This document shows positions 1-4,850 of a stretch of DNA of 25,215 bases, one piece after another; the first letter of the stretch is position 1; every line of letters starts with the position of its first letter. Made by a program: the position numbers and the translations under genes. The DNA is from Candidatus Schekmanbacteria bacterium RIFCSPLOWO2_02_FULL_38_14 (lineage in GTDB: Bacteria; Schekmanbacteria; GWA2-38-11): the NCBI GenBank assembly GCA_001790855.1, contig MGDH01000036.1:1-25215 (forward strand). The letters run 5' to 3'. The notes under the pieces are model-generated. The model did not search any database. It was not told the DNA's origin and saw nothing but the letters and a program-made list of their open reading frames with translations.

Positions 1-2799
1 ATTATCAAACAATATGGCTGTATCGTAAATACTGTCCCCAATGTCAGTAGCATAGAACTTAATTTTAAGATGTTTTCCAGCATATGCTGAGACATCTAAT
101 ACCTCGTTTATCATCCATCCGGTGTTGTAGACACCACCCCGGTCAAAGCTCACATCAGACTGAGAAACAGAACCGCACAGAGAATCAACATTCCTGCTAA
201 AGAGTACATCCTCAGCTCCCCAAGTGGCTGTTGCGTCATCATATACAGAAATTTTAACGACAAATGCATCTTGATACTGACTATTACAATACTCGATGAA
301 TTCCTCAGAGAAGAAGTTCCAGTCAAAGCTAATGGTGCTTAACTTGGATGAGGAGCAGAATTCCTGTTCGATGGAGCCGCTTGATGTTGTGTATCCCAAG
401 CCGGTTGAGATAATACCCATAAATGAACCTTCAGTCGGTGAGGTACCTCCGAGTTGGGTAATTATTCTACCATCTCCTGCGCTTACCCATGGAGTAAGCA
501 CACCGTCCTCAAACCCGGCATTTTCCAGTTCTCCAGAAGAAAGTACTAAGTTGCTGTTTCCTGTATAATACAGATAGGCAGGGTCTGCATCTGCGTCACT
601 TGCGCCATACGTGCTTATTGCATTAGCAACGCTTTGCGATACGGTTTTATCATCAAACATATCATTAATGATTTTGGTTGTAGTGTTTCTGGCATAAGCG
701 CTGTTAACATAATCAGAAAAACCTATTACAGCACCTGCTCCTTTAGAGAGAAATACATTCGCCATTGAATTGTTATACATGGACCTGCAAGCGCCAAGAA
801 CTACAAGGCTGTTTGGAAGTGAACCGAGATAATCAGAGAAGAATTTTGGCAGCAAGGAAACAGTTCCGCTCGGAGAAATTGCGATTCTCTTGGCTTTTAT
901 ATCAGCTTCATAGCCGGTAATGTCGAATGTACCATCCTCTTTCTTGGGAACTTTAACACCGGTTAATATTACCACCTGAGAAAGCGCTCCTTTCAAGAAA
1001 TCATTTGGTCCCCATGCCTCTTTCCATATACCAAGCAATCCTTCGAAATAGTTATCACCATGTGTAGAAACATGAATGTAACCATAATCTGAGAGGTTCT
1101 TGAATGTGTCAACTGAAACATTTATAGAGCCATTATTAACAACTTCTTTAGTTGCATATAAAGCACAGGATTTTTTATCTTTGATAGCTTGCCATGGCCC
1201 ATAATAATCGTCTGTATTGCCGAAGTTCGCGGTTGTGTTTGGATTATTTATATATGGGCTGATTAGGATTCCTTTAGTGCTTTTTATCTGATCCTTTTTT
1301 TCAGCTGCAGCTATGGAGAATTTTGCACTTTTCCCAATTCCAGTCAGTTTACTCCAGTAGGAAGGTGCATATTTAGAACGGTCTTGTAGGTACTCGGGTG
1401 GATAATATTTTACATCAGAGTTAGTGCCTTTAGTTGGTGTAGCAGATGAAACCTGAGAGCTTTTTTCACCGCTGCGGCTGCTACCAGACCTCTGTCCTGC
1501 TTTTGTCGGATGGTAAAGACCAAGAATACCATCATTTGTAACCCACCATACCCCACCTGTCCCGGTTGTATTTACAGCACCAATAGATAGGTCATCTTTG
1601 AGTGTATTCTTTACTTCCTCTGCAGCTTGTTTAAAATTCTTTTTATTAGCAATTGCATCGTTGAATATTTCCTCTGCTGAATCTGCAATACTTACCGCAT
1701 TATCAACCTGTTCACTGGTGAAATGAGAGGTTACCCAGATTGAGATAGTTTCAGAGGAATATGTGGTTTCACCTTTTGTTACTCCGACGCGGTAATAAAG
1801 GAATCCCTCCTCTGTAGGACTTAAGGATTGTGAAATTGTAAAGTTTCCATCTCCCTGAATTTCATCCGGGGAAACACCGTCATCTTTCATTTCTCCCAAT
1901 TCAACCGGATTTTCTCCATTTGCATCAGTTTGATATAATTTCACAACTGCATCAGTTGTATTTCCCAGACCAATAACGAATATAACGTTAGTGCTGTCAT
2001 TAACATAGAGAGCACTTATAGATTCTTTAAGTGTCTCATACTTCCCGGTTTCAGAGTTATAAACTTGAGATGTTTTGAAGAATGAAAGTGGCGTCGTAAA
2101 GTCAAGCGAAGGGTAGTAGGTCACAATAGTTGAGATTTCATTTTCAGAATTATCATCTGCAATTGCAAGAAAGCGGAGTTTGTTGTCTCCTTCTTGGAGT
2201 ATTATGCTGGCACTCCACTCTGTGGTTCCTGTAGCTTTTCCGCTTTTACCATTTGTATCGTTAAAATATTTTACAACGGAAATACCGGCATCAGATTGCG
2301 CAACACCAACAAAGGTTGCAGGGGTTGTATTTGTAACTTTAATTGATTCTCCAAGCCCTGTAATGGTTATGGAAACAGAATCTGCAAAGGTTTTCTTTTT
2401 CTTAATAAACTGGGCTTCAATAATTCCGTTTGAAGAAACATTCTTTAGTTTATAAACAAGTTGTTTCCCAGGGTTTCCTATCTTAACTGTCTGGCCATTC
2501 AGATTGATTATGGGGTAATAAGTATTGTTTTTTGGTATTGCTGTAAATGATTTTCCTCCCCCAGCTTTTATTACAATCTTTCCCTTGGGCCTGATTTTGC
2601 CGTTTGGTCCGGCTGTTGCAGTAATTGTGTATTTAGTAGGTAATGGTATTGTTGTGGTTGTTGTGTCTGTGGAAGTTGTTGTCGTAGTGATTGTTGTGGT
2701 TGTACTTGTGTCTGTAGTCGTGGTGGTATCTACAGCAACAGAAAGTGAAATCATAAAAATGGTGAAAATAATTATCAAACTGCAAACTTTTTTAATCAT
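1..2799 (-). CDS. Exported CHAT/caspase-fold cysteine peptidase-like protein (3' end outside window)
   Basis: The frame is open from ATG at 2799 to the window edge: 933 codons with no stop, checked codon by codon. A GAAGGAGT ribosome-binding site lies 8 nt upstream. Order of parts: signal peptide (about 1-22, probable cleavage after SVA); Thr-rich linker (25-50) ending in IP; a module at about 56-132 resembling divergent InlB B-repeats (YTITATAGPNGKI start, IIEAQF end); an Ig-like or beta-rich stretch; a clan CD peptidase domain at about 510-745; then from about 757 a choice-of-anchor-L-like module (FDWNFFSEEF at 825-834). Clan CD motifs are YIHVSTHGD (His580-Gly581) and SLVVLGACRS (Cys671), followed by FLSKGAGAVIGF, which is typical of CHAT domains. 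The His-Cys gap of 91 residues looks long for CHAT. I infer a secreted or surface protease that matures or cleaves other proteins; the substrate is unknown. A C25-like assignment is the main alternative. Confidence 0.85.
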   Translation of the reverse strand, partial: MIKKVCSLIIIFTIFMISLSVAVDTTTTTDTSTTTTITTTTTSTDTTTTTIPLPTKYTITATAGPNGKIRPKGKIVIKAGGGKSFTAIPKNNTYYPIINLNGQTVKIGNPGKQLVYKLKNVSSNGIIEAQFIKKKKTFADSVSITITGLGESIKVTNTTPATFVGVAQSDAGISVVKYFNDTNGKSGKATGTTEWSASIILQEGDNKLRFLAIADDNSENEISTIVTYYPSLDFTTPLSFFKTSQVYNSETGKYETLKESISALYVNDSTNVIFVIGLGNTTDAVVKLYQTDANGENPVELGEMKDDGVSPDEIQGDGNFTISQSLSPTEEGFLYYRVGVTKGETTYSSETISIWVTSHFTSEQVDNAVSIADSAEEIFNDAIANKKNFKQAAEEVKNTLKDDLSIGAVNTTGTGGVWWVTNDGILGLYHPTKAGQRSGSSRSGEKSSQVSSATPTKGTNSDVKYYPPEYLQDRSKYAPSYWSKLTGIGKSAKFSIAAAEKKDQIKSTKGILISPYINNPNTTANFGNTDDYYGPWQAIKDKKSCALYATKEVVNNGSINVSVDTFKNLSDYGYIHVSTHGDNYFEGLLGIWKEAWGPNDFLKGALSQVVILTGVKVPKKEDGTFDITGYEADIKAKRIAISPSGTVSLLPKFFSDYLGSLPNSLVVLGACRSMYNNSMANVFLSKGAGAVIGFSDYVNSAYARNTTTKIINDMFDDKTVSQSVANAISTYGASDADADPAYLYYTGNSNLVLSSGELENAGFEDGVLTPWVSAGDGRIITQLGGTSPTEGSFMGIISTGLGYTTSSGSIEQEFCSSSKLSTISFDWNFFSEEFIEYCNSQYQDAFVVKISVYDDATATWGAEDVLFSRNVDSLCGSVSQSDVSFDRGGVYNTGWMINEVLDVSAYAGKHLKIKFYATDIGDSIYDTAILFDN

Positions 2800-2865
2800 A
2801 ACTATTTACTCCTTCAATATAAATTTAAATCCTTAATTAGACTTTCAATAAATCATTTTGAGATA

Positions 2866-2894
2866 ATTATCCATTCAAATGACAGAATTGTCAA
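2866..2894 (-). promoter_or_regulatory. Sigma70-type promoter for the CHAT-like gene
   Basis: On the minus strand TTGACA (2894-2889) is followed after exactly 17 nt by GATAAT (2871-2866), a 6/6 and 5/6 match to the -35 and -10 consensus. Transcription would start near 2859, giving a leader of about 60 nt before the ATG at 2799. It begins 7 nt beyond the stop of the upstream TPR gene, so the exported protein is probably expressed separately from the lipM-TPR pair. Confidence 0.65.
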
Positions 2895-2900
2895 GGTATT

Positions 2901-4850
2901 TCATTTGTTTTTCAGTTCTTTAATTTTTTCCTTAGCTTCTTTGTTCTCCGGCTCAATTGAAAGTATATCTGCATATACTCTTAAAGCCCCCTGATAATTT
3001 TTCAGGTTTTCAAGTATAATTCCCTTGGAAATTTTAAGAGATATATAATCCTTTGCCTCATATCCGGGCGTGCCTAATCCGTTCTCCAGCGCCCTCTCGG
3101 CTTCCTCGAATAGACCTATTTTAACAAAACAATTCCCAATAAGGTTGCAGTAATCAAGAAACTTCTTTTCAACCCCTGCTTTTATCAAAGGGTCTTTTGA
3201 CGCTTTTTGAAATTCTTTGATTGCGTCATCAAACAGCTCCATCTCCATATAGGCAAGCCCTAAATTATAATGAGTGCTGTAATCCTCTGAATCAATCTGC
3301 TTTTCAATATTTTCCTTAAAATGGGTAAAAATATTTTCTAAAAACTTATCCTCTTCAACAAGATTTTTCTTTTCTTTTTTCCCATCCTGATTAAAAGGAT
3401 CCATCTCTCCTTTCAAAATCTCTCCGAGGTCAAAGAATTCTTTTGTCCCTTCCTCATTGCCTCTAACTTTAAGCTTAGGTTTTATATCTGTTGTTTCACC
3501 CTTATAATCAGCCATATTTGATTTTTCTGTCTTCTCTACCTCTCTCTTTTCCTCTTTCCCTTCAAGAAACTTTATAGCCTCTTCAACCAAGCCCTGTTTT
3601 AGCAGTTTTTCAATTTCTTCTAACCCATCATCATCTTTAACTTTTAAAGAGTATTCTTTTTCCGTCTTTTCATGAGCAAGAAACTTCTTTAAAAGCTCAT
3701 TTATACGTTCTTTTGAGCGCGGGAAGTCAGGGTCTATGGAAACTATTTCTTTCAAAGCCTTAATTGCCTTTTCATAAATCTTGTTGTCTTCGTAATTTTT
3801 TACCAGACTCTCGTATTCCTCAACTGCCCTCCTCTTTTCTCCTGCCATTTTTAACACTGAAGCAAATTTTTCTCTCATCTTATAATCAAATATAGCCTCT
3901 CCGCTTAACCCCTCCAGCAAGCTGATTGCTTCACTGAATTCCTTTCTAAAAATAAAGTCATTAACAACTTTTATGAATTCTGTCTTAGCTTCTTCAATAG
4001 CGCCATTTCTTAAATATAACCTCGCAAGCCTTTCCCGCGTTTCTGTAAGAGATGGCTCAAGATTTAATATTTTGATGAAAACATCTATCGCCTTCTCATT
4101 AAGTTCAATCCTGCAATAGCATCTTGCAAGAAAAGCCAGGCTGTCAATGTCATCAGGATTCAAGCTCAACGTTTTTTTAAAAAGCTGTATGGCTTTGTCC
4201 ATATCTCCTTCATCAAAGAAACATTTCCCAAGTCCCTTATAGCATGTAAAACTCCCAGGATTGAACTGAACCGCTTTATCAAAAAGAATTACTGCTTCCC
4301 TTCTCTCGCCCTTTTTGAACAATTCATTCCCAAGCTTTACAAATTCGCTTGATGCTTCAATCTGCATTCCGCCATCAATGCACATCTGCAAAAATTTTCT
4401 CCTAAGGTCAACATTGCCGGGTTCAAGGTTCAAGAGTTTTTTAAACACCTCAACCTTTTTTCTTTTTTCTTTTTTCCCCTCATAATAATCAAGCAACCAC
4501 TGGTAGTTGGTTTTTGCTTCAAAATAAAGTTTTAACTCTGTATAGAGTTCAGCCATCTTTTCATAAGGCTCAGGCATATCAGGAGAAAGGCGTGATATTT
4601 TTTTATAAAGGGCAACCGACTTGAGGAAAAATCCCTTCTCTTTTTGATTTTCAGCGACAAGAGAATATTCCCTTATAGCCTCTGGAATCCTGTTCTTTTT
4701 GACATAAAGGTCACCGAGGGTATTGTGTAGATTGAAATCACTCTGGTCTAATTTCAGCGCGCTTTCATACTCAGAAACAGCTTTATCAACATCCCCTCTT
4801 TGGAGGGCTTTCTGGGCAAGCTCTACTAATACATATTTTTCTTTAATCAT
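2901..4850 (-). CDS. Tetratricopeptide repeat protein
   Basis: This 649-aa protein has no signal peptide and is built of TPR-like helix pairs. Clear repeats run from residue 10 to about 290 (for example the units starting ALQRGDVDKAVSEYESALKL and AIQLFKKTLSLNPDD). A charged, low-complexity Lys/Glu stretch lies at about 405-480. A C-terminal block follows (FFDLGEILKGEMDPF, then HYNLGLAYMEMELFDDAIKEFQ, about 470-560) with two or more further TPRs. That C-terminal block resembles large TPR proteins common in deltaproteobacteria, often near motility or secretion genes; the exact role is unknown and probably scaffolding. The ATG lies 4 nt after the lipM stop, so the two genes are translationally coupled. 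It is cytosolic by sequence, so direct partnership with the exported CHAT-like protein is not implied. Confidence 0.85.
   Translation of the reverse strand: MIKEKYVLVELAQKALQRGDVDKAVSEYESALKLDQSDFNLHNTLGDLYVKKNRIPEAIREYSLVAENQKEKGFFLKSVALYKKISRLSPDMPEPYEKMAELYTELKLYFEAKTNYQWLLDYYEGKKEKRKKVEVFKKLLNLEPGNVDLRRKFLQMCIDGGMQIEASSEFVKLGNELFKKGERREAVILFDKAVQFNPGSFTCYKGLGKCFFDEGDMDKAIQLFKKTLSLNPDDIDSLAFLARCYCRIELNEKAIDVFIKILNLEPSLTETRERLARLYLRNGAIEEAKTEFIKVVNDFIFRKEFSEAISLLEGLSGEAIFDYKMREKFASVLKMAGEKRRAVEEYESLVKNYEDNKIYEKAIKALKEIVSIDPDFPRSKERINELLKKFLAHEKTEKEYSLKVKDDDGLEEIEKLLKQGLVEEAIKFLEGKEEKREVEKTEKSNMADYKGETTDIKPKLKVRGNEEGTKEFFDLGEILKGEMDPFNQDGKKEKKNLVEEDKFLENIFTHFKENIEKQIDSEDYSTHYNLGLAYMEMELFDDAIKEFQKASKDPLIKAGVEKKFLDYCNLIGNCFVKIGLFEEAERALENGLGTPGYEAKDYISLKISKGIILENLKNYQGALRVYADILSIEPENKEAKEKIKELKNK

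What the first reader, a model, noticed from the sequence alone, without database searches (positions are those of the whole stretch)
1..2799. Exported CHAT-like protease with Thr-rich linker, InlB-type module and choice-of-anchor-L-like domain
Clan CD motifs (YIHVSTHGD, His580; VVLGACRS, Cys671; FLSKGAGAVIGF) lie in a protein with a signal peptide and surface-type modules. CHAT domains are mostly known from cytosolic TPR-CHAT or NTPase-linked systems, so an extracellular CHAT domain followed by a choice-of-anchor-L-like module is unusual. The His-Cys gap of 91 residues suggests an insertion in the catalytic domain. A strong dedicated promoter indicates independent expression. It could be an extracellular processing or toxin-type protease.
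Basis: partly seen in the sequence, partly recalled or inferred. Interest (0 to 1): 0.65.

Follow-up and report, generated by a model that had tools for sequence, protein, structure and literature searches.

The report
Exported caspase-like surface protease family
The gene makes an exported bacterial protein with a caspase-type cutting domain related to, but separate from, the CHAT proteases; the same cutting unit recurs on surface proteins of several unrelated bacterial phyla and even inside some bacterial competition toxins, but nobody has yet shown what it cuts.

Summary
Window 1-2799 (minus strand) encodes a 933-aa exported protein cut off by the contig end. His580-Gly and Cys671 are the strongest signal in it: in 21 aligned homologues from at least four phyla the only invariant columns of the catalytic domain are His, Gly, one Pro and Cys. 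A model of the domain (pLDDT 73, pTM 0.77) matches clan CD peptidases, SAVED-CHAT (Z 13.6) and DdvA (Z 13.5) first; His and Cys follow beta-3 and beta-4, as the clan requires. The domain forms a clade apart from canonical CHAT and has a conserved insert between His and Cys. The contig-end question is settled by a sister genome: the gene ends about 8 residues further on, without a sorting signal. The choice-of-anchor L module is supported; its model resembles CBM- and MAM-type beta-sandwiches. Relatives sit outside the cell through lipoboxes or SLH domains; two SLH members are HINT pretoxins (one with EndoU). The window protein has no toxin domain. Most likely it is an exported, surface-retained clan CD peptidase; whether it cuts in cis or in trans is undecided. 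New variant of a known kind.

The parts
1..2799 (-). coding sequence, 933 aa seen; true end about 8 codons beyond the contig end
   Evidence: ORF; sister gene ends DNIVLTDAP*; contig C2 of the same genome carries the 3' end of the same or a near-identical gene, DNITITDAP*, followed by the same downstream gene
2866..2894 (-). sigma-70-like promoter TTGACA-17-GATAAT in the gap after the TPR gene
   Evidence: consensus match only
2809..2814 (-). ribosome-binding site AAGGAG, 9 nt before the ATG
2734..2799 (-). probable signal peptide (residues 1-22)
   Evidence: sequence; homologues carry signal peptides, lipoboxes or SLH domains
2644..2736 (-). Thr-rich linker, 21 of 31 residues Thr (22-52)
2395..2637 (-). 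InlB/repeat-like beta module (residues 55-135)
   Evidence: similarity to repeat proteins, E 8e-7 to 3e-5; no Pfam match
2116..2382 (-). Ig-like module (residues 140-228)
   Evidence: Glucodextran_B / Big_7 / Big_13, weak, in 4-8 of 21 members
1726..2115 (-). choice-of-anchor X-like module with DDG..DEI.GDG loop (residues 229-358)
   Evidence: NCBIfam NF041940 18.4 bits, cut-off 25; D306 G308 D312 D317 at least 90% conserved in 21 homologues
1522..1722 (-). two helices plus GGVWWVTNDGI beta element (residues 360-426); G424 invariant
1288..1521 (-). variable linker before the catalytic domain (residues 427-504)
   Evidence: alignment and pLDDT below 50
535..1287 (-). clan CD peptidase domain, CHAT-related (residues 505-755)
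1060..1062 (-). His580, predicted catalytic, after beta-3
   Evidence: invariant; model strand 574-577 precedes it
787..789 (-). Cys671, predicted nucleophile, after beta-4
   Evidence: invariant; model strand 665-668 precedes it
808..1053 (-). stretch between His and Cys, lengthened by a family-specific insert with LTG..YExD...GR...P.F (P651 invariant)
1..531 (-). choice-of-anchor L beta-sandwich (residues 757 to the end)
   Evidence: CBM28/CBM27/MAM-like matches

Best explanation
An exported, surface-retained cysteine peptidase of clan CD, in a distinct family related to CHAT. The protein leaves the cell through its signal peptide; Thr-rich, InlB-like and Ig-like parts form a stalk, the anchor-L beta-sandwich probably binds a surface or extracellular polymer, and a Cys671-His580 dyad cuts peptide bonds. 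The most likely use is processing in cis: cleavage of the flexible linker in front of the catalytic domain (residues 427-504), which would free the peptidase and whatever lies C-terminal to it from its N-terminal anchor. Shown: gene, homology, invariant dyad, fold by prediction, export features across relatives. Inferred: catalytic activity (about 0.8), cis rather than trans cleavage (about 0.45), Ca2+ control through the Asp-rich anchor-X loop (weak guess).
For: Only H580, G581, P651 and C671 (and G424 upstream) are invariant in 21 homologues from at least four phyla; five further weak hits keep HG and C. Catalytic-domain model pLDDT 73.1, pTM 0.77; best VIA rows SAVED-CHAT Z 13.6 (180 aligned, 3.0 A), DdvA 13.5, separase 12.8, TPR-CHAT about 11, gingipain 10.9, then metacaspase, legumain, caspase: 47 of 50 rows are named clan CD enzymes. 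His and Cys follow beta-3 and beta-4, the clan's defining positions (PMC4357240). Profile match to 23 canonical CHAT domains E 5.5e-11 with His on His and Cys on Cys; reversed and other-domain controls fail. Relatives swap N-terminal anchors and accessory domains (lipobox, SLH, PASTA, PKD) but keep the peptidase. Two SLH members put it between the anchor and a HINT pretoxin end. Autoprocessing clan CD domains in surface proteins and toxins are an established idea (PMC3482391), and C80 peptidases cut about 30 residues before beta-1 (PMC4357240).
Against: No conserved cleavage site was found in the linker. In most members nothing but anchor-L lies downstream, so there is little obvious cargo. 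In the pretoxin members the peptidase sits more than 850 residues before HINT, unlike usual releasing peptidases. No activity data exist; the larger model (residues 360-933) has low confidence (54).
Confidence: 0.45

Rival explanations
1. Same exported clan CD peptidase, but cutting in trans: a clostripain- or gingipain-like endopeptidase for external proteins or neighbouring surface proteins, held at its target by the anchor-L sandwich.
For: Secreted clan CD enzymes of this kind are known (PMC3482391, PMC4357240). The peptidase plus anchor-L pair is kept together in most members and the anchor-L model resembles CBM28/CBM27 and MAM sandwiches. One genome has four copies on one contig.
Against: No substrate candidate; no conserved neighbour except the small downstream gene shared with the sister genome. 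Some members lack anchor-L.
Confidence: 0.35
2. A non-catalytic or sensory clan CD domain; DdvA shows that a CHAT-like fold can sit in an anti-sigma factor.
For: DdvA is one of the two best structural matches.
Against: The dyad is invariant in every member examined, whereas 3 of 23 canonical CHAT domains had lost His or Cys in the same alignment; no transmembrane or signalling domain follows.
Confidence: 0.12
3. Part of a toxin or defence system.
For: Two relatives are HINT pretoxin proteins, one with EndoU; canonical CHAT occurs in defence.
Against: No toxin domain, and the gene ends right after anchor-L; no PADLOC match; upstream neighbours are a TPR protein, a lipoate ligase and glycine-cleavage genes.
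Confidence: 0.05

Closest known systems
CHAT domain (Pfam PF12770; SAVED-CHAT, TPR-CHAT/Csx29)
   Same: Same fold; aligned His and Cys; best structural and profile match
   Different: Below the Pfam cut-off (12 of 24 bits), separate clade (support 1.0/0.95), longer conserved stretch between His and Cys, exported with surface modules, no TPR or SAVED
Separase (C50), gingipain (C25), metacaspase/caspase (C14), legumain (C13)
   Same: Clan CD fold with the dyad after beta-3 and beta-4
   Different: Lower structural scores for most; no sequence-level match found
Caspase-like releasing peptidases of polymorphic toxins (PMC3482391)
   Same: Internal clan CD domain in exported multi-domain proteins; two relatives are HINT pretoxins
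   Different: Window protein has no toxin; in the pretoxin relatives the peptidase lies far upstream of HINT
Choice-of-anchor L domain proteins (NCBIfam NF038133)
   Same: C-terminal module matches, above cut-off in four homologues
   Different: The name implies a following sorting signal; here the protein ends within about 8 residues of the domain

Membership tests
Peptidase clan CD | His then Cys dyad at the C-terminal ends of beta-3 and beta-4 | tested here: met
   Model strands 574-577 and 665-668 followed by His580 and Cys671; fold matches; criterion from PMC4357240. On a predicted model only.
Peptidase clan CD | Conservation of the dyad among homologues | tested here: met
   Invariant in 21 of 21 and in five further hits
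Peptidase clan CD | Cysteine-dependent proteolysis | not testable with these tools
   needs an assay
CHAT (PF12770) | Score above the curated Pfam cut-off | tested here: not met
   12.0 bits in the window protein, 22.5 in the sister gene, cut-off 24; 3 of 21 members match at all
CHAT (PF12770) | Homology with aligned catalytic residues | tested here: met
   hhalign E 5.5e-11, His on His, Cys on Cys; controls negative
CHAT (PF12770) | Placement inside the canonical CHAT clade | tested here: not met
   Clean split of 21 family and 23 CHAT sequences, support 1.0 and 0.95; midpoint-rooted, long branches advise caution
Choice-of-anchor L (NF038133) | Score above the curated cut-off | tested here: inconclusive
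   22.2 of 27 bits in the truncated window protein; 32-39 bits in four homologues over the same stretch
Choice-of-anchor L (NF038133) | C-terminal sorting signal after the domain | tested here: not met
   Sister gene and contig C2 end ...TDAP*
Polymorphic toxin | C-terminal toxin domain with neighbouring immunity gene | tested here: not met
   Gene ends after anchor-L; next gene is a small putative lipoprotein without Pfam match

The most novel reading that the evidence does not exclude
An undescribed, portable 'self-shedding' unit (anchor-X, clan CD peptidase, anchor-L) that bacteria of several phyla place between a cell-surface anchor and a C-terminal cargo, cutting itself loose on a signal; some SLH-bearing Bacillota use it to release pretoxins.
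Probability: 0.25. Interest if true: 0.65.

Novelty: new variant of a known kind. Interest (0 to 1): 0.48.

Why it matters
It defines an exported caspase-type peptidase family that Pfam, NCBIfam and PADLOC do not name; it is sporadic (about 1-3% of the genomes sampled here) but spread over Schekmanbacteria, Hydrogenedentes, Planctomycetota, Bacillota and unnamed lineages. It extends CHAT-type folds from intracellular signalling and CRISPR to the cell surface, and gives a direct test of whether surface proteins and polymorphic toxins use such domains to release themselves.

Tried and rejected
Viral contigs: no relatives in two scans. The single phage-collection hit (MT835937, E 2e-7) lies among genes that read as bacterial housekeeping (TsaE-, TsaB-, RpiB-, Upp- and FtsW-like) in an UNVERIFIED record, so it is taken as bacterial DNA. 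Plasmids: listed matches cover only the SLH part. TPR-CHAT idea (the upstream gene 2904-4850 is a TPR protein): rejected, because the sister genome has a different gene upstream. Partner-lipoprotein idea: small putative lipoproteins follow the gene in both Schekmanbacteria and in L068, but the L068 one is not similar (E 0.65). PDB sequence search: nothing significant. Rfam and tandem repeats in the window: none. The model of residues 360-933 (pLDDT 54) was too weak for fine reading, so the catalytic domain was modelled alone. Literature: no paper on this family or architecture was found in the held library. The HetF paper was checked for an extracytoplasmic CHAT domain: it makes no such statement in the passages read. 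L018 is labelled Proteobacteria by its submitters, but its genome came up within the phylum of the Planctomycetota genome, so it is not counted as a separate phylum.

Full report
Observation. The window begins at base 1 of contig C36 of a 2.68-Mb genome. On the minus strand 2799..1 encodes 933 residues without a stop. Pfam gives only a weak CHAT match (E 0.14); NCBIfam gives choice-of-anchor L and X matches below their cut-offs.

C-terminus. The sister MAG Candidatus Schekmanbacteria GWA2_38_11 holds a 912-aa orthologue, 68% identical, that ends DNIVLTDAP* directly after the anchor-L domain. Contig C2 of the window's own genome begins with a near-identical 3' end (349 of 382 bases; 94% in protein) that ends DNITITDAP*, followed by the orthologue (73.7% identical) of the gene that follows in the sister genome. 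So the protein most likely ends about eight residues past the contig edge and has no sorting signal. The two ends differ at 33 sites, so they are either tandem copies or strain variants; the contig breaks inside a run identical in both.

Homologues. One genome carries four copies on one contig. Across 21 full proteins the invariant columns are G424, H580, G581, P651 and C671; for the catalytic domains alone, with a 436-aa minimal member included, they are H, G, P and C. Five further weak hits keep HG and C. The catalytic pair is what selection has kept.

Fold. A 260-residue model from five sequences has pLDDT 73 and pTM 0.77. Foldseek and VIA-align rank SAVED-CHAT, DdvA, separase and TPR-CHAT high, followed by gingipain, metacaspase, legumain and caspase. 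Strand order puts His580 after beta-3 and Cys671 after beta-4, the clan CD rule (PMC4357240). A profile of the family matches a profile of 23 canonical CHAT domains at E 5.5e-11 with both catalytic residues aligned; reversed CHAT and other parts of the same proteins give nothing. In a tree the family separates cleanly from CHAT. The His-Cys gap is 68-110 in the family against 40-50 in 20 of 23 CHAT domains, because of an insert with its own conserved YExD...GR...P.F pattern.

Surface architecture. N-termini vary: Thr-rich stalk, lipobox with PKD, lipobox alone, SLH, PASTA. Two proteins of 2187 and 2193 residues carry SLH, Ig, this peptidase with anchor-L, TSP3 and pretoxin HINT; one also has EndoU.

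Function. Shown are export features, the fold by prediction, and an invariant dyad. Activity is inferred. Because the unit sits between exchangeable anchors and, in some relatives, exchangeable C-termini, and because clan CD domains in surface proteins and toxins are thought to process their own chains (PMC3482391), self-processing is the leading guess at 0.45, with a trans-acting surface peptidase close behind at 0.35. A toxin role for this protein is unlikely.

Verdict. A real, under-described family: a new variant of the clan CD/CHAT kind, exported to the surface.

Noticed in passing
G000 contig C22:125379-126200 (L001 337-3252, minus strand): The same genome's only canonical CHAT protein joins a class III nucleotide-cyclase-like domain (Pycsar cyclase matches) to CHAT, a hydrophobic segment and a C-terminal region.
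   Followed up: partly
L075 3202-9762 and L076 5011-11589: SLH-anchored HINT pretoxin proteins (EndoU in one), each followed by a small gene that may be the immunity protein.
   Followed up: partly
L065 (G857 contig C65): Four copies of the family close together with a 931-aa gene of unknown kind between them; a relative of that gene (47.5% identical) also adjoins the family member in L066.
   Followed up: no
L023 522-1016 and L022 11513-11968: Small putative lipoprotein conserved downstream of the gene in both Schekmanbacteria genomes, no Pfam match.
   Followed up: partly
L008 1-180 (contig C2 start): The first bases of contig C2 recur nearly exactly from base 97 on, probably an assembly artefact at a repeat.
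   Followed up: partly
MT835937.1 (L101): Record labelled Bacteriophage sp. reads as bacterial chromosome from a gut organism; it encodes a minimal signal-peptide plus peptidase member without anchor-L.
   Followed up: partly
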